From positions 1-50,116 of IMG/VR virus record IMGVR_UViG_3300021136_000014: a stretch of 50,116 nt of DNA. The stretch is one strand, 5' to 3'. This document shows positions 9 through 34,414 of the stretch, piece after piece. Under the pieces are notes generated by a model. It searched no databases. It had not been told where the DNA came from and saw only the letters and a program-made list of their open reading frames with translations. Source of the stretch: a virus. The translations under genes were made by a program, and so were the position numbers. How positions within the stretch are numbered: the stretch's first letter is position 1; every line of letters starts with the position of its first letter.

Positions 9-866
9 ATGCAAATTAAGAATGATAATATAGATATAAAAGAACGTATAAAAGATGAATACTTGAAATGCGCTACAGACCCAGTGTATTTCATGAAGAA
101 ATTTTATATGATTCAACATCCTCAAAGAGGTCGACAAATGTTCGATCTCTATCCTTTTCAAGAACAAGTACTGAAATTATTTCAAAAACATTCTGATTCG
201 ATTATTAATAAGTCAAGACAATTAGGAATATCTACACTAGTTTCTGCTTATTCTTTATGGTTAATGATGTTTCAAAGGGATAAAAACGTTCTTGTAATTG
301 CGACTAAGCAGGAAACTGCAAAAAACATGGTAACTAAAGTAAGATTTGCTTACAATAATTTACCTGATTGGATGAAAAAAATAGCCAAATCTACTTCAAA
401 TAATCAACTTAGTCTTAGTTTAAGTAACGGTTCTCAAATTAAAGCAGTATCTGCAGCAGGTGACGCTGGTCGTTCTGAAGCTGTATCATTACTAGTAATA
501 GATGAGGCCGCATTCATTGATAATATTGAAACAATTTACACAGCTGCTAAGATGACCTTAGCTACCGGAGGAGGGTGTATAGCTTTATCGACTCCAAATG
601 GTGTTGGTAACTGGTTTCATGCAACATACTCAAAAGCACAAAAACAAGAAAACGCATTTTTACCTATATCTTTACCTTGGACAGTACATCCTGAAAGAGA
701 CATTGAGTGGAGAAAGCAACAAGATATCGATTTAGGCGTAAGAAACGCAGCACAAGAGTGTGATTGCATCGCTGGAGATTCTGAAATATGTGTTTTAGAT
801 GAATTGACTAAAGAGATAAAAATTATATCTTTACATGATCTATATTCAGACATACATTCTAATTAG
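9..866 (+). CDS. 17 (terL-N): Terminase large subunit, N-terminal ATPase half fused to split-intein N fragment
   Basis: This encodes the ATPase half of the DNA-packaging motor (T4 gp17 family), which pumps DNA into the prohead through the portal. Visible motifs are a deviant Walker A, SRQLGIST (residues 69-76), Walker B LLVIDE (161-166) and the coupling motif STPNG (194-198). Before the nuclease domain, after QECD (residue 252), the sequence becomes an intein N fragment: Cys253 begins the block A-like CIAGDSEI and runs 33 residues to the end. Two consecutive in-frame stops, TAG TGA, close it, so a single sequencing error would not explain the break. The nuclease half is the gene at 1649. The start lies 8 bases into the window; the protein begins much like other far-T4 TerLs (YFMKKFYMIQHP), so it looks complete, although an upstream start cannot be excluded. 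Confidence 0.93.
   Translation: MQIKNDNIDIKERIKDEYLKCATDPVYFMKKFYMIQHPQRGRQMFDLYPFQEQVLKLFQKHSDSIINKSRQLGISTLVSAYSLWLMMFQRDKNVLVIATKQETAKNMVTKVRFAYNNLPDWMKKIAKSTSNNQLSLSLSNGSQIKAVSAAGDAGRSEAVSLLVIDEAAFIDNIETIYTAAKMTLATGGGCIALSTPNGVGNWFHATYSKAQKQENAFLPISLPWTVHPERDIEWRKQQDIDLGVRNAAQECDCIAGDSEICVLDELTKEIKIISLHDLYSDIHSN
765..863 (+). other. Split intein N fragment (IntN), 33 residues
   Basis: The fragment starts at the nucleophilic Cys and contains only the block A region (C-x-x-G-D) plus a short strand-rich stretch ending LYSDIHSN. Ordinary split inteins break near residue 100, so this break is unusually early. From memory it resembles the AceL-TerL split intein of the Ace Lake metagenome, which also lies in a phage terminase and has a 25-residue N fragment. 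The partner C fragment is at 1649-1984. The identification rests on motifs plus the fact that removing both fragments restores a continuous TerL sequence (QECD followed by CDFATSGNTV). Confidence 0.9.
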
Positions 867-879
867 TGATTATGTGGAA

Positions 880-887
880 TATTTATT
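880..887 (+). promoter_or_regulatory. TATTTATT box before the intein-associated endonuclease
   Basis: This matches the box found before most transcription units here, but it lies only 3 bases from the ATG at 891. Either the message is leaderless, the box serves another start, or the match is chance in AT-rich DNA. Confidence 0.35.
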
Positions 888-890
888 AAC

Positions 891-1652
891 ATGAATGCGA
901 TTGCAGATAGAGTAAAAATATCTTGGGAAAAATCTAATAACGCTATTGATAGCATAAAAGATACATATGATTATAGCGCTACTAGAGAATTATTACTGAG
1001 AGACGATTTTTATAAGTCATTATATGGAAAAGGCAAAAATAGAAGTCTTATAAAAGCCGATATGATATTATACAAGTCAATCTATGAACACACTAAAGAT
1101 TTAGAAGTTTTTTTTGTTGCCAGATTTAAAAACAAAATATCGGAAGCATCTATACAATACTATATTTCGTTTTCTAAAAGAGTTAAATTTATAGCTGAGT
1201 ATGATAAAAACTTTTCTTTATTGAAGTGTAATTGTGGAAATTCAATAACATGGCATAAATACTGCAGAAAGTGTCCTGAGTATCATAAAACTCAGACTAA
1301 TAGAAAACACACAGATGCTACTAAATTAAAAATGAGAATATCTACTTTAAAATATATTCATGATGGAAAAGGTCAAATTGTTCCGCGCTATAATAAAAAA
1401 TCTATATCATTAATAGAAAACTTTGGTATTGAAAATAATTATAATTTTTCTCATGCTGAAAATGGAGGGGAGTATTTTATTAAAGAATTAGGATATTTTT
1501 TAGACGCTTATGATCATGAAAATAATATAGTACTAGAAATAGATGAGCTCCATCATTATGATTCAATGGGAAATTTAAGAAAGTCTGATATACGCAGGCA
1601 AAAAGAAATAGAGTCTTTTCTTGACTGTAAATTTTATAGAATAAAGATATGA
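891..1652 (+). CDS. Vsr-like (EDxHD) homing endonuclease inside the fractured terminase gene
   Basis: This 253-residue protein is a probable homing endonuclease that would cut intein-free terL alleles and spread the insertion. A putative zinc-binding cluster is visible at C113, C115, C125 and C128. The C-terminal catalytic region contains GGEYF (E194), LDAY (D205), then EIDELHHYD (216-224) and a SDIRRQ helix, the layout of Vsr/EDxHD nucleases known from fractured-gene split inteins in environmental phage sequence. It is in the same frame as the upstream IntN, separated by tandem stops and 21 further bases. Its stop overlaps the next start as ATGA, suggesting translational coupling to the IntC-TerL half. 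No Shine-Dalgarno sequence precedes the ATG. The next Met is at residue 58, so this start is preferred. Confidence 0.85.
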   Translation: MNAIADRVKISWEKSNNAIDSIKDTYDYSATRELLLRDDFYKSLYGKGKNRSLIKADMILYKSIYEHTKDLEVFFVARFKNKISEASIQYYISFSKRVKFIAEYDKNFSLLKCNCGNSITWHKYCRKCPEYHKTQTNRKHTDATKLKMRISTLKYIHDGKGQIVPRYNKKSISLIENFGIENNYNFSHAENGGEYFIKELGYFLDAYDHENNIVLEIDELHHYDSMGNLRKSDIRRQKEIESFLDCKFYRIKI

Positions 1653-1984
1653 TAGAACTCGTAAAAAATAGTAAATACAAAGTACTAACGCCATCAGGAT
1701 TTCAATCTTTCTCTGCTATAAGGGCATTAAAAAAAGACGCGTACTATAATATTGTATTTTCTAACGGAAAAAGTATTAAGTGTTCTACTAATCATAAGTT
1801 TATTAGAGATGGAATTGAAGTTTTTGTGTATGATTTAGAGATTGGATCTTTTTTAGATGGCAAAAATAATAGCAAAGTAGTTGTTTTAAGCAAAACTTTA
1901 GAAAGCGGGGAAATATTTTTGTATGATCTAGTAAATGTGAATAATGAAAGCATTTTTTATTCAAATGATATAGTTTCCCATAAT
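1649..1984 (+). other. Split intein C fragment (IntC), 112 residues
   Basis: The fragment ends ...NDIVSHN before Cys at 1985. The penultimate His and terminal Asn are the usual splice-junction residues. The block B motif has Ser in place of the common Thr (S-x-x-H). It supplies nearly the whole intein fold, complementing the 33-residue N fragment. The end FLYD...V.ESI....VSHN resembles, from memory, the AceL-TerL C fragment. Confidence 0.9.
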
Positions 1985-2836
1985 TGCGACTTCGCTACTT
2001 CAGGTAATACAGTGATTGAACCAGAAATTTTAAATTGGTATTCAGAGAACATGATTAAAGAACCAATTGATATTGGGGTGTTAGATAGAGCTCTCTGGGT
2101 GTGGGAAGTTCCTGATCCTATGAAATACTATATGGTTGTAGCAGACGTCGCCAGAGGAGACGGGATGGATTATTCTGCGTATCATGTAATTGATGTAGAT
2201 ACTTTAACGCAAGTAGCAGAATACAAAGCTCAAATAGATACTAGATATTTTGCAAATGAATTAATATCTATAGCCACAAAATATAATCGTGCATTATTAG
2301 TGATAGAAAACGCTAATATAGGATGGGATGTAATTCAATCTGTATTAGAAAGTGGATATACTAACATGCACTACAGTCACAGAGCTGACAATAGCGCTGA
2401 TTTTCAAACCTATCTTTCAGTTCATAATGGAAATCATACATTAGTACCAGGATTTACAATGGCAACTAAAATTAGATTAAATGTTATTGAAAAAATGAGA
2501 GACTATATAGAAAATAAACATGTGACAATTAGATCAATAAGATTATTAGACGAATTAAGAGTGTTTATTTGGAAAAATGGTAAGCAACAAGCCATGCAAG
2601 GATATAATGATGATCTAGTAATGGCATTTGCGATTGCAATGTTTTTAAGAGAGACATCAGTACGATACAAAAAAACAGCTGATAGTTTAACTATTGCTGC
2701 AATAACTAATGTTGGTAAAAGTTCTGCTGATTTAGGATTTTATGCAGCAAATAATTATAATGCTCAAAATCCTTGGAGTATGAAAATATCAGCACCAGGA
2801 GGAGATTATCAACAAGATTTAACTTGGCTTATATAA
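1649..2836 (+). CDS. 17 (terL-C): Split-intein C fragment fused to terminase large subunit nuclease half
   Basis: Residues 1-112 are an intein C fragment: it has a block B-like CSTNHKF (45-51), the block F region FLYDLVNV (90-97) and the terminal SHN, followed by Cys113 as the +1 nucleophile. Residues 113-395 are the TerL nuclease domain. They carry D166 (VVADVARGDG), E220 (LLVIENAN) and the late acidic pair D321/D322 (YNDDLVMAF), the RNase H-like metal-binding set that cuts concatemeric DNA. Trans-splicing with the product at 9-866 would give about 535 residues (252 + 283), a normal TerL size. The start overlaps the endonuclease stop by four bases (ATGA), so re-initiation by terminating ribosomes is likely. 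The portal gene follows after 10 bases. Confidence 0.93.
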   Translation: MIELVKNSKYKVLTPSGFQSFSAIRALKKDAYYNIVFSNGKSIKCSTNHKFIRDGIEVFVYDLEIGSFLDGKNNSKVVVLSKTLESGEIFLYDLVNVNNESIFYSNDIVSHNCDFATSGNTVIEPEILNWYSENMIKEPIDIGVLDRALWVWEVPDPMKYYMVVADVARGDGMDYSAYHVIDVDTLTQVAEYKAQIDTRYFANELISIATKYNRALLVIENANIGWDVIQSVLESGYTNMHYSHRADNSADFQTYLSVHNGNHTLVPGFTMATKIRLNVIEKMRDYIENKHVTIRSIRLLDELRVFIWKNGKQQAMQGYNDDLVMAFAIAMFLRETSVRYKKTADSLTIAAITNVGKSSADLGFYAANNYNAQNPWSMKISAPGGDYQQDLTWLI

Positions 2837-2846
2837 CTAAATAATT

Positions 2847-4775
2847 ATGGCACAACCTGAAATAAAAAAAGATAATTTATTCGCATCACTTAGAAGATTA
2901 TTTTCTACTGATGTGATTATTAGAAATACTGGAACTAAAGGCGGAACTGGAATCACAGTAATGGATCCTGATAATATTCAAGCTAATGGTGTTATACAAA
3001 CTAACTCATTAATTGATCGCTTTCATAAAGTATATACGACTTCTACTGCTTATGGAGTCAATTTAAATTTAGCACAAAATTATCAATCAGCCCGTGTACA
3101 AATATACGCTGATTATGATTCAATGGATACAGATGCAATCATATCTTCAGCATTAGATATTATAGCTGATGAGTGTACGTTAAAAGATGAAAATGGAATT
3201 TTATTACAGATTAGATCTGCTGATGAAAATATTCAAAATATACTAGAACAATTATTTTATTCTATACTTAATATAGAATTTAATCTTTGGGGGTGGGTAA
3301 GAAATTTTTGTAAATATGGAGATTTTTATTTAAAATTAGAAATATCTGAAAAATTTGGAATTTATAATGTAATTCCTTTTTCTGCTTATAATATTGTTAG
3401 ACAAGAAGGTTTTAATCCGCATAATCCAAATGAAGTAAGATTTAAATTTGATCCTAATGCTGCACTAGGATCTACTACGGGTTATTCATCAGCATATAAT
3501 AATCAAGACGTTGGAGTTTGGTTCGATAATTATGAAATGGCTCACTTTAGATTTACTGGAGATGTAAATTATTTACCATATGGAAAATCTTATTTAGAAA
3601 ACGCAAGAAAATTATTTAAACAATATACTCTTATAGAAGACGCAATGCTTATTCATAGGATTGTAAGAGCACCTGATAAAAGAGCATATTATGTTAATGT
3701 GGGAGCTATCCCACCTGCTGAGGTTGAAAACTATATGCAAAGAATGATGAACAAGATGAAAAAAACTCCTCTTGTTGATCCTAATACTGGTGATTATAAC
3801 ATGAAGTACAATGTACAAAACATGTTAGAAGATTATTTTGTTCCAAGAAGAGGAAATGAAGATTCTACTAAAATAGAAACAATACCTGGATTAACTTATA
3901 ATGGTATTGAAGACGTACAATACTTTAGAGAAAAAGTGTTTGCTGCTCTTAAAATACCTAAAGCTTTCATGGGATATGAAAAAGATCTAACTGGTAAAGC
4001 CACTTTAGCAGCAGAAGATATTCGTTTTGCAAGAACAATAGAAAGAATTCAAAGAATAATTGTATCAGAACTTAAAAAAATCGCATTAGTTCATTTATAT
4101 GCAAATGGTTATACAGATGAATCAGTAGCTAATTTTCAGTTAAGTTTAACTGGACCTTCTATCATATATGATCAAGAAAGGGTTGCGATGTTGAAGGAAA
4201 AAGTTGATTTAATGAATCAAGCTATGGAAGCTAAGAGTTTACCAAGGGATTACATGTGGAAAAATATCCTAAAAGTGTCAGAAGATGAATTTGCAGAAAT
4301 GGAAGATATGATTATTGAAGATCAAAAAAGAGTATTTAGATATAATCAAATTCAAGAAGAGGGAAATGATCCAGCAGAAACCGGTCAAGCATTTGGAACT
4401 CCACATCAATTAGCAAGTTTATATGGCGGTAAAGGAGATGGTAATTTAGATGTTCCATCAGGATACGATGAAAATGATCCAAATAGACCTACTAAAATAT
4501 CTGGAAGACCTCAAAAATATAAATCTACTTATAAAACAGATGATTCTCCATTTGGAAGAGATAGACTTGGATCTTATGATTTAAAAGCTAATGCAGAGAC
4601 TGGAGAAGATAGTTTTAAACCAAAATTTAAGGGTGGTCCTTTAAATTTAGAAAGTAGGGATACTATGAATTTATATTTACAACATAGAAGTTCTTTACAA
4701 AAAATGTTTCCAAGTAGAAAGACAACTTTATTTGAATCTAGTACATTAGATGAAGATAATATACTAGAAGACTGA
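2847..4775 (+). CDS. 20: Portal vertex protein (T4 gp20-like)
   Basis: The portal forms the dodecameric ring at one capsid vertex through which TerL translocates DNA. The 642-residue protein has the gp20 signature near its N-terminus, YADYDSMDTDAIISSALDII (about residues 90-109), then WGWVRNFCKYGDFYLKLE and the PYGKSYLENARKLFKQY region, as in far-T4 portals. It is about 120 residues longer than T4 gp20 (524); the extra length is a hydrophilic C-terminal tail rich in Gly, Asp, Pro and Lys from about residue 505. The terminase-then-portal order supports the call. There is no Shine-Dalgarno sequence; TAACTAAATAATTATG precedes the coding region. Confidence 0.93.
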   Translation: MAQPEIKKDNLFASLRRLFSTDVIIRNTGTKGGTGITVMDPDNIQANGVIQTNSLIDRFHKVYTTSTAYGVNLNLAQNYQSARVQIYADYDSMDTDAIISSALDIIADECTLKDENGILLQIRSADENIQNILEQLFYSILNIEFNLWGWVRNFCKYGDFYLKLEISEKFGIYNVIPFSAYNIVRQEGFNPHNPNEVRFKFDPNAALGSTTGYSSAYNNQDVGVWFDNYEMAHFRFTGDVNYLPYGKSYLENARKLFKQYTLIEDAMLIHRIVRAPDKRAYYVNVGAIPPAEVENYMQRMMNKMKKTPLVDPNTGDYNMKYNVQNMLEDYFVPRRGNEDSTKIETIPGLTYNGIEDVQYFREKVFAALKIPKAFMGYEKDLTGKATLAAEDIRFARTIERIQRIIVSELKKIALVHLYANGYTDESVANFQLSLTGPSIIYDQERVAMLKEKVDLMNQAMEAKSLPRDYMWKNILKVSEDEFAEMEDMIIEDQKRVFRYNQIQEEGNDPAETGQAFGTPHQLASLYGGKGDGNLDVPSGYDENDPNRPTKISGRPQKYKSTYKTDDSPFGRDRLGSYDLKANAETGEDSFKPKFKGGPLNLESRDTMNLYLQHRSSLQKMFPSRKTTLFESSTLDEDNILED

Positions 4776-32083: not shown

Positions 32084-34414
32084 ATGAGTTTATTTGTTAA
32101 TGTAAGAAGATTTAAAAATAAGCAAGAAGATGCAACTATAATAAATAATGAACAATTAGATTATTTAGTAACATATGCTTTAGATGTTTTAGATAGAAAT
32201 ATAGAAGGTGATTTTGTTGAATTAGGTTGTTATGTAGGTGAGTCTTCAAAATTTTTAAGAAAGGCATTAGTAGAAACCAAATCAGAAAAGGATTTATATG
32301 TATATGATTCTTTTGAAGGATTACCCCCAGTGTCTATTTATGAAGAAAGCACTGGTTGGAAAGAAGGCGGATTAAAAACTACTGATGAAGTATTAGTAGC
32401 AAATTTTAGACAAAATGGATTAAAACCTCCTATAATAACTAAAGGATGGTTTAAAGATATTCCAGAATATAAATTACCAGAAAAAATTTCATTTGCATTT
32501 TTAGATGGAGATTTTTATGATTCTATATACGATAGTTTAAATAAAATCTATGATAAAGTTTCTGATGGTGGTTATATATGTTTTCACGACTATGATAGAA
32601 ATGATTTACCTGGAGTTAGAGCCGCAATAGAAGATTTTTTTGACGAAAGAGGAGAATCTTTTACTATAATAAAAGCATGTGATCAATTTGCAATAATTGA
32701 AAAAAATAATAAAGTTAAACGATTGAGTATAACAAGAGAAAAATTAACTTTAGTAACTGGCCTATGGAATATAGGAAAATCTGGAAGATCTTTTGATCAC
32801 TATTTAGAGTGTTTTTCAAAACTTTTAGAAGTAGATCAAAATATGTTACTTTTTATTCCTAAAGAATTAGAAGGATTTGTTTGGGAAAGAAGAAATTCGC
32901 ATAATACGTATGTAATATTATTTGAATTATCAGATCTTAAAAATTTATTTAGTCCTTTTTGGGATGATGTACAAAGATTAAGAATTGATGAAAAATGGTA
33001 TGGACAAGCTGGATGGATTCCAAATTCTCCTCAAGGTTCTTTAGAGTGGTATAATCCTATTGTTATGTCTAAATTATCTTTATTACATGATGCAACAATA
33101 CATAATCCATTTAATACGGAAAATTTAGTTTGGATTGATGCGGGTATTTCTAATACTATTAATTATAATTTATTAATAGATACTAATTTTTTCGATAAGC
33201 TTAATGATTATTTAAAACCTTTCTTATTTGTATCTTATCCATATCCGTATTATGGTAAAGGCGTAGGAGAAGTACATGGATTTGAATGGGAAAATATGAA
33301 TCAATTAGCAGGTCAAACTGTAGAATGGATTTGTAGAGGTGGATTATTTGGAGGTACAATAAATTCCATTAAAGAAATGAATGGACATTATTGGCATTTA
33401 ATGAAAAATACATTAGCTCAAAATTTAATGGGCACAGAAGAAAGTTTATTTTCTATTTTAGCTAGTAAATTTCCAAATATTTGTAGACAATCGAGAATTA
33501 ATATCAATGGACACATTCAAGAATTTGTATCTAAAGTATTAGATGGAACTGCAGAATTAGAACGCATCCCAGAAGGATTAAAAAATTCATACATTGATAC
33601 GTCTAATTTAAAACTATCAGTGTATATGCTAACATTTAATTTTCCTCATCAAGTAGAACACACTATTCAAACATGGTTAAAGCATAATAATTGGTTAACT
33701 AATACAAGAAATATTTTAATTGATAATTCAACTAATGAAGAGGCAAGAATAAAAAATAAAGAAATTTGTGATAAATATAATTTTGAGCATATTATCACAA
33801 ATGAAAATACAGGAATAAATGGAGGTAGATTAAGAGCAGCAAAACATTTTCAAGAATCAGATAGTGATTATTATTTATTCTTAGAAGATGATATGGGAAT
33901 TCATGAACCTATAGATGGATTTTGTAGAAATGGATTTAGAACATATATTCCAAATTTATATGATAAAGTATTAAAGATTCTTCATGGATCAGATATTGAT
34001 TTTTTAAAATTATCATACACAGAGGTTTATATGGATAATAATATTCAAGTATCTTGGTATAATGTTCCTCAAAACGTAAGATCAGAATTTTGGCCTGATT
34101 ATGATAAATTACCTATTACTGGATTAGATTCAAATTCTCCAAGAACTAAATTTGATAAAATAGAAGTGGTAGATGGTCTTAGTTATATAACAGGAGAAAT
34201 ATATTATGCTAATTGGCCAACTGTTACTGGTAAAAAGGGAAATCAAAAAATGTTCTTAGATATTGAATGGGCTCATCCTTATGAACAAACTTGGATGAGT
34301 TATATGTTTCAAGAAACTAAAAAAGGCAACATTAAACCAGCTGTATTATTAGCTAGCCCAATAAATCATAACAGAATAGCTCACTATTCCCCAGAAGATA
34401 GAAGAGAAAATTAG
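32084..34414 (+). CDS. Three-domain fusion: TylF-like methyltransferase, HtrL/YibB-like, GT2-like
   Basis: The 776-residue protein joins three modules. Residues 1-210 are a TylF/MycF-type SAM-dependent O-methyltransferase: DFVELGCYVGESSKFLRKAL (binding loop), YDSFEGLP, AFLDGDFYDS, and DGGYICFHDYD. Residues about 213-490 resemble HtrL/YibB (WlaTC) proteins of glycan loci: LTLVTGLWNIGKSGRSFDHY, NPIVMSKLSLLHDA, and LVWIDAGIS. Residues about 508-776 resemble a GT2 transferase: LSVYMLTFNFPHQVEHTIQT, NENTGINGGRLRAA, and YLFLEDDMG with a DD metal site. The parts are normally separate, so this could methylate and extend the same sugar chain. It closes the island; 41 bases follow before the next gene. 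Confidence 0.78.
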   Translation: MSLFVNVRRFKNKQEDATIINNEQLDYLVTYALDVLDRNIEGDFVELGCYVGESSKFLRKALVETKSEKDLYVYDSFEGLPPVSIYEESTGWKEGGLKTTDEVLVANFRQNGLKPPIITKGWFKDIPEYKLPEKISFAFLDGDFYDSIYDSLNKIYDKVSDGGYICFHDYDRNDLPGVRAAIEDFFDERGESFTIIKACDQFAIIEKNNKVKRLSITREKLTLVTGLWNIGKSGRSFDHYLECFSKLLEVDQNMLLFIPKELEGFVWERRNSHNTYVILFELSDLKNLFSPFWDDVQRLRIDEKWYGQAGWIPNSPQGSLEWYNPIVMSKLSLLHDATIHNPFNTENLVWIDAGISNTINYNLLIDTNFFDKLNDYLKPFLFVSYPYPYYGKGVGEVHGFEWENMNQLAGQTVEWICRGGLFGGTINSIKEMNGHYWHLMKNTLAQNLMGTEESLFSILASKFPNICRQSRININGHIQEFVSKVLDGTAELERIPEGLKNSYIDTSNLKLSVYMLTFNFPHQVEHTIQTWLKHNNWLTNTRNILIDNSTNEEARIKNKEICDKYNFEHIITNENTGINGGRLRAAKHFQESDSDYYLFLEDDMGIHEPIDGFCRNGFRTYIPNLYDKVLKILHGSDIDFLKLSYTEVYMDNNIQVSWYNVPQNVRSEFWPDYDKLPITGLDSNSPRTKFDKIEVVDGLSYITGEIYYANWPTVTGKKGNQKMFLDIEWAHPYEQTWMSYMFQETKKGNIKPAVLLASPINHNRIAHYSPEDRREN

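What the first reader, a model, noticed from the sequence alone, without database searches (positions are those of the whole stretch)
9..2836. Terminase large subunit is a fractured gene rebuilt by a split intein
Two separate genes encode the ATPase and nuclease halves of TerL. The first ends in an intein N fragment starting at Cys253, and the second begins with an intein C fragment ending His-Asn before Cys. Removing both fragments joins QECD to CDFATSGNTV, the expected continuous TerL sequence, and gives about 535 residues. Tandem in-frame stops (TAG TGA at 864-869) show the break is real. Packaging in this phage would thus depend on protein trans-splicing of its motor.
Basis: partly seen in the sequence, partly recalled or inferred. 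Interest (0 to 1): 0.92.

Follow-up and report, generated by a model that had tools for sequence, protein, structure and literature searches.

The report
Terminase gene split by trans-splicing intein
In this phage the DNA-packaging motor is encoded in two separate genes whose proteins should be stitched together by a naturally split intein, with a probable homing endonuclease gene sitting in the gap; the arrangement is real and belongs to an already described kind (AceL-TerL/GOS-TerL), but close relatives show that the endonuclease gene is repeatedly lost while the split almost always stays.

Summary
ORF 9-866 is the TerL ATPase half plus a 33-aa IntN (Cys1 at 765). ORF 1649-2836 is a 112-aa IntC (ends His-Asn) plus the TerL nuclease half (Cys+1 at 1985). 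Joining them gives a gap-free 535-aa TerL (60.8 kDa), 88% identical to uninterrupted relatives. IntC matches the solved atypically split TerL intein Cat in sequence (E=2.6e-22) and predicted fold (TM 0.80). The same phage species (99.2% nt) occurs with the HEG and with a 766-nt HEG deletion; both stay split. Among 74 related loci (38 clusters) at this site, 51 carry a full HEG, 8 a remnant or incomplete match, 14 none, and one is a contiguous intein. Synonymous divergence indicates horizontal movement. Trans-splicing and HEG activity are inferred, not shown. This is a new member of a known kind: a fractured terL with an AceL-TerL/GOS-TerL/Cat-type split intein. The more interesting result is the natural deletion series: the split outlives its endonuclease.

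The parts
9..764 (+). TerL N-extein: ATPase half, 252 aa ending ...AAQECD
   Evidence: Pfam Terminase_6N E=6.2e-11; phrog_5989 terminase large subunit E=9.2e-42; 61% identical to Flavobacterium phage immuto TerL
765..863 (+). IntN, 33 aa, CIAGDSEICVLDELTKEIKIISLHDLYSDIHSN, catalytic Cys1 at 765-767
   Evidence: Begins exactly at the insertion point; conserved 30-36 aa IntN in relatives. No hit of its own in the PDB: too short
864..869 (+). Tandem stops TAG TGA ending IntN; L008 has TAC TGA, so the second stop is the one in use there
891..1652 (+). Probable free-standing homing endonuclease, 253 aa: N-terminal helices, Cys4 knuckle (C113, C115, C125, C128; about 1227-1274), C-terminal nuclease-like domain with invariant E194, D205, E216, D218, H222, D233
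   Evidence: 11 relatives aligned; weak Pfam MTES_1575, NUMOD3, DUF559 matches in relatives; Foldseek I-Bth0305I 3r3p E=0.64, TMt 0.50 and Vsr 1vsr among the hits, not significant
863..1628 (+). 766-nt stretch (the HEG) deleted in conspecific contigs L002, L004, L005, L006, which remain split
1649..1984 (+). IntC, 112 aa, own ATG overlapping the HEG stop (ATGA), block-B His49 at 1793-1795 (STNH), C-terminal His-Asn
   Evidence: phmmer CatC 6dsl E=2.6e-22; Foldseek 6dsl E=4.0e-10, TMt 0.80, 41% identity
1985..2836 (+). TerL C-extein: RNase H-like nuclease half, 283 aa, starting with Cys+1 (CDFATSGNTV)
   Evidence: Foldseek T4 gp17 3cpe E=7.7e-13 and G20c/RB49 terminase nuclease domains; 48% identical to immuto TerL
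2847..4775 (+). Portal protein, next gene of the packaging operon (context)
   Evidence: phrog_213 E=1.4e-69

Best explanation
The large terminase gene is fractured into two genes by an atypically split intein of the AceL-TerL/GOS-TerL/Cat type (short IntN of 33 aa, large IntC of 112 aa, split after the first intein helix). TerL-ATPase+IntN (32.3 kDa) and IntC+TerL-nuclease (44.9 kDa) are made separately; IntN docks on the incomplete HINT fold of IntC; Cys1 and Cys+1 carry the acyl shifts, Asn112 cyclises, and an uninterrupted 535-aa TerL is released. The ORF between them is a homing endonuclease gene that most likely cuts intein-free terL at or near the QECD|CDF codons so that the whole IntN-HEG-IntC cassette is copied in. 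Shown by computation: anatomy, homology, insertion point, frame break, conservation, horizontal signal, HEG presence/absence series. Inferred: trans-splicing, endonuclease activity and target site.
For: IntC homology to CatC and fold match to 6dsl plus T4 gp17 in one predicted protein. Catalytic residues conserved: Cys1, block-B S/T-x-x-H, His-Asn, Cys+1. Exact, gap-free empty site in relatives. Seventy-three of 74 related loci at this site are split the same way, one is contiguous. The 19 HEG-bearing loci found carry the IntN-HEG-IntC cassette of terL wherever the flanks are held. HEG dN/dS 0.275 against L011, and IntC dN/dS 0.038 against L008, indicate purifying selection. Element synonymous differences are fewer than extein ones between window and L008 (41 of 178 vs 202 of 474 codons, Fisher P=3e-6), while L008 TerL is closer to intein-free L012. 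No other TerL in large related contigs.
Against: No biochemical evidence. IntN alone has no database hit. The HEG family assignment is weak. The window record is a 50-kb fragment, so an intact terL elsewhere in this very phage is not formally excluded, only unlikely from relatives with larger contigs.
Confidence: 0.93

Rival explanations
1. The halves are joined at RNA level by a self-splicing intron that carries the endonuclease gene, comparable to the spliced terL of ICP1.
For: terL introns with neighbouring HEGs are known (ICP1, PMC10448857).
Against: No Rfam group I/II match in the window, even at relaxed E-value over 600-2200. The flanks are intein-coding and under protein-level constraint (IntC dN/dS 0.04), IntC has its own start codon, and HEG-less alleles keep only a short gap between IntN stop and IntC.
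Confidence: 0.02
2. The two TerL halves work as separate non-covalent subunits and the intein pieces are dead remnants.
For: Genes-in-pieces enzymes that function as two peptides exist, such as a phage ribonucleotide reductase split by a HEG (cited in PMC10448857).
Against: All splicing residues are kept and IntC is under strong purifying selection, including in an allele whose HEG is truncated. One relative (L183) keeps the same intein as a contiguous one.
Confidence: 0.04
3. The break is a sequencing or assembly error in an ordinary contiguous intein.
For: The window is metagenomic; a contiguous relative exists (L183).
Against: Window, L003 and L007 agree over the whole region with 0 differences; conspecific HEG-less contigs and 36 other clusters are also split, with different gap lengths and stop codons.
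Confidence: 0.01

Closest known systems
AceL-TerL, GOS-TerL and Cat-TerL atypically split inteins (PMC11766414, PMC13014065; PDB 6dsl)
   Same: Same host protein (TerL), short IntN / large IntC with split after the first helix (reported 25/104, 37/115, 30/104; here 33/112), Cys1 and Cys+1 as in AceL and Cat, direct sequence and fold homology of IntC.
   Different: New natural sequence (about 41% identity to CatC in the fold alignment); genomic context with HEG shown here; with-HEG and without-HEG alleles within one phage species. GOS-TerL uses Ser1. Splicing measured for those, not here.
Fractured genes of Dassa et al. 2009 (split inteins with free-standing endonuclease between halves; paper cited but not readable here)
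   Same: Two gene halves with split intein pieces flanking a free-standing endonuclease ORF; probable EDxHD-type nuclease.
   Different: Details compared only from memory; HEG family membership not established statistically here.
Aeromonas phage PX29 gp17A/gp17B (GU396103)
   Same: TerL (gp17) split at the equivalent ATPase-nuclease position, annotated as N-intein and C-intein.
   Different: Endonuclease is annotated GIY-YIG and fused to the IntC ORF; here it is an unrelated free-standing gene.
Vibrio phages K469 and VP-1, Escherichia phage kaaroe, Campylobacter phages
   Same: Related IntC in TerL, split genes, in cultured phages.
   Different: K469 and VP-1: equivalent site, but a GIY-YIG-like endonuclease fused to IntN. 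kaaroe and Campylobacter: different site, after the Walker-B acidic residue (DE|CAF).

Membership tests
Atypically split TerL inteins (AceL/GOS/Cat type) | Homologous intein splicing domain with HINT fold | tested here: met
   CatC phmmer E=2.6e-22; Foldseek 6dsl E=4e-10, TMt 0.80
Atypically split TerL inteins (AceL/GOS/Cat type) | Short IntN (15-37 aa) and large IntC on separate polypeptides | tested here: met
   33 aa and 112 aa, separate ORFs; reported ranges in PMC11766414 and PMC13014065
Atypically split TerL inteins (AceL/GOS/Cat type) | Catalytic residues Cys1, block-B S/T-x-x-H, His-Asn, Cys+1 | tested here: met
Atypically split TerL inteins (AceL/GOS/Cat type) | Host protein is phage TerL, spliced product continuous | tested here: met
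Atypically split TerL inteins (AceL/GOS/Cat type) | Demonstrated trans-splicing | not testable with these tools
   needs an expression experiment
Fractured gene with split intein and homing endonuclease | Free-standing endonuclease-like ORF between the two intein halves | tested here: met
EDxHD (Vsr-like) homing endonucleases | Vsr-like catalytic fold and EDxHD residues | tested here: inconclusive
   Invariant E194, D205, E216, D218, H222, D233; 3r3p E=0.64, TMt 0.50, prob 0.72; MTES_1575 best E 4.5e-4 in 3 of 11 relatives
EDxHD (Vsr-like) homing endonucleases | Cuts the intein-free allele | not testable with these tools
   needs an in vitro cleavage assay
Group I/II intron in terL | Intron RNA structure | tested here: not met
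   no Rfam intron match

The most novel reading that the evidence does not exclude
The split state is no longer a side effect of the endonuclease but is maintained for its own sake, for example because two-part TerL assembly times or limits the packaging motor, so that fractured terL persists after the HEG is lost. My survey does not exclude this: of 9 clusters holding HEG-free alleles only 1 is contiguous. It does not prove it either, since random deletions restore frame at most about one time in three (binomial P about 0.14 under that assumption).
Probability: 0.12. Interest if true: 0.7.

Novelty: new member of a known kind. Interest (0 to 1): 0.45.

Why it matters
It gives genomic context, in uncultured phages, to a split-intein class so far known mainly as a protein-labelling tool. 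It also supplies a natural deletion series (full HEG, remnant, none, contiguous) in one gene, which bears directly on the open question of how naturally split inteins arise and why they stay split. Dozens of diverse IntN/IntC pairs with known exteins are a resource for orthogonal split inteins. Annotation pipelines that look for one long TerL will miss or mislabel the gene, which is used as a phage marker.

Tried and rejected
Rfam scan for introns: nothing, only a chance snoRNA-like match. PDB sequence search with IntN alone: no hit; with the HEG or its profile: only chance hits. A mixed IntC alignment (A2) was too diverse to search with, so a closer set (A5) was used. Foldseek of the full HEG model gave no significant hit; the I-Bth0305I and Vsr hits are suggestive only. 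Tested whether HEG-less alleles had become contiguous: only L183 is. Considered selection for the split from its persistence: numbers too small to claim. Comparison of window with L011 showed no excess similarity of the element over exteins (P=0.23), so the recent-transfer signal is limited to window versus L008. Dassa et al. 2009 and the I-Bth0305I paper were not available to read.

Full report
OBSERVATION. The three ORFs at the start of the window were read directly. ORF 9-866 encodes a TerL ATPase half (Terminase_6N E=6.2e-11; phrog_5989 E=9.2e-42) followed by CIAGDSEICVLDELTKEIKIISLHDLYSDIHSN and the tandem stops TAG TGA. ORF 1649-2836 starts with a 112-aa intein C part ending SHN and continues with Cys and the TerL nuclease half. 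It is in the same frame as IntN, behind the two stops, and overlaps the IntC start by 4 nt. No frame is open from 765 to 1984.

IDENTITY OF THE INTEIN. IntC matches chain B of 6dsl, the consensus atypical split intein Cat, at E=2.6e-22. The AlphaFold model of the whole ORF (pLDDT 77) gives significant structural hits both to T4 gp17 and other terminase nucleases (3cpe E=7.7e-13) and to 6dsl (E=4.0e-10, TM 0.80, 41% identity). Catalytic positions are conserved across nine diverse IntC sequences: block-B His invariant with S/T three residues before it in nearly all, His-Asn at the end, Cys+1. Reviews describe AceL-TerL (25/104), GOS-TerL (37/115) and Cat-TerL (30/104) as TerL inteins with the split site after the first helix (PMC11766414; PMC13014065). 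Here the lengths are 33/112.

INSERTION POINT. Removing both fragments leaves AAQECD|CDFATSGNTV. The 535-aa product (60.8 kDa) aligns with no gap near the site to the uninterrupted TerL of L012 (88% identity) and to cultured Flavobacterium phage immuto. Almost all of loci L012-L081 match the query only from the C-extein junction onward, and those examined carry uninterrupted TerL at this site.

NOT AN ARTEFACT. L003 and L007 match the window with 0 differences over the whole region; L083 does so over its overlap. L002, L004, L005 and L006 belong to the same species (99.2% nt over 5.2 kb, except L006 with 4.4 kb) but lack 766 nt, window 863-1628, which is essentially the HEG. Their IntN reads on for a few codons (...DIHSKNFIE) and stops at TAA; IntC keeps its own ATG a few bases later. 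L008 keeps only the last 54 codons of the HEG, and its first stop TAG is TAC, so the following TGA ends IntN. In 11 related contigs of 74-304 kb the only TerL matches are the two fractured halves.

THE ENDONUCLEASE. Nineteen loci with the ORF or a relative were found in viral contigs (43-100% identity), and every one whose flanks are held shows it between IntN and IntC of terL. Its 3' end overlaps the IntC start (by 4-17 nt) in all those measured, which suggests translational coupling (inference). Invariant residues include a Cys4 knuckle and E194, D205, E216, D218, H222, D233. Relatives show weak Pfam hits to MTES_1575, DUF559 and the HEG-associated motif NUMOD3. The model's Foldseek list contains I-Bth0305I (3r3p, E=0.64, TMt 0.50) and Vsr (1vsr), but nothing significant. 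I call it a probable EDxHD/Vsr-like homing endonuclease; the family assignment remains inconclusive. In one relative (L102, same contig as L114) the HEG is fused in frame to IntN.

SURVEY. Of 74 related loci with the upstream half present (38 clusters at 90% IntC identity), 51 have a full HEG, 8 a remnant or incomplete HEG match, 14 none, and 1 (L183) is a contiguous intein. In three clusters, with-HEG and HEG-free alleles coexist. So the endonuclease is lost repeatedly while the split almost always stays. With 1 contiguous of 9 clusters holding HEG-free alleles this is not distinguishable from a simple ratchet in which random deletions rarely restore the frame. Loci were the best 80 of 357 candidates from one pattern scan, so the proportions are not population frequencies.

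MOBILITY. Between window and L008, synonymous differences affect 41 of 178 same-residue codons in the element but 202 of 474 in the exteins (Fisher P=3e-6); pS is 0.24-0.45 against 0.64-0.72. L008 TerL is closer to intein-free L012 (95/93% aa) than to window (89/88%). This indicates that the element moved between lineages after they diverged. IntC dN/dS is 0.04 (window/L008) and HEG dN/dS 0.275 (window/L011), so both are under purifying selection. IntC and TerL distances correlate across clusters (Spearman 0.37, 0 of 999 permutations as high), so inheritance is partly vertical.

PLACE AMONG KNOWN SYSTEMS. TerL is a repeated intein target. Among 50,697 cultured phage records, 310 carry a relative of this IntC, listed mostly under terminase annotations. 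PX29 gp17A/17B are annotated N-intein and C-intein with a GIY-YIG endonuclease. Vibrio K469 and VP-1 have a GIY-YIG-like sequence fused to IntN at the equivalent site. Escherichia phage kaaroe and Campylobacter phages are split at another site after the Walker-B acidic residue. The finding is therefore a new member of a known kind. Best supported mechanism: trans-splicing of TerL by an atypically split intein, with a HEG-driven mobile cassette. Splicing and cutting remain to be shown.

Noticed in passing
L025:917-3997: A different split intein in the same TerL family, inserted after the Walker-B residues (LLVMDE|CAFIDN), with another endonuclease-like ORF (1542-2573) between the halves; kaaroe (L088) and Campylobacter phages (L085) are split at the same place.
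   Followed up: partly
L091:837-3324 (Vibrio phage VP-1): TerL appears to hold two inteins: a contiguous one inside Walker A (SGK|T) and a split one with a GIY-YIG-like endonuclease at the ATPase-nuclease junction.
   Followed up: partly
L103, L141, L146, L148, L150, L158, L159: Insertion point shifted two codons upstream (QE|CDxDF instead of QECD|CDF), as if the element slid over the Cys-Asp repeat.
   Followed up: partly
L102:3113-4741 (same contig as L114): IntN and endonuclease fused in one ORF; the C half is separate.
   Followed up: no
L183: Only contiguous version of this intein found: single ORF through TerL-N, IntN, IntC, TerL-C.
   Followed up: partly
L090:2509-4716 (Serratia phage 3M, Ackermannviridae): Contiguous mini-intein inserted in the TerL Walker A P-loop (QSGK|TT), perhaps also in related Salmonella and Klebsiella phages whose TerL matched IntC.
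   Followed up: no
window 32084-34414: 776-aa ORF with weak DNA methyltransferase matches (phrog_2675 E=1.3e-5).
   Followed up: no
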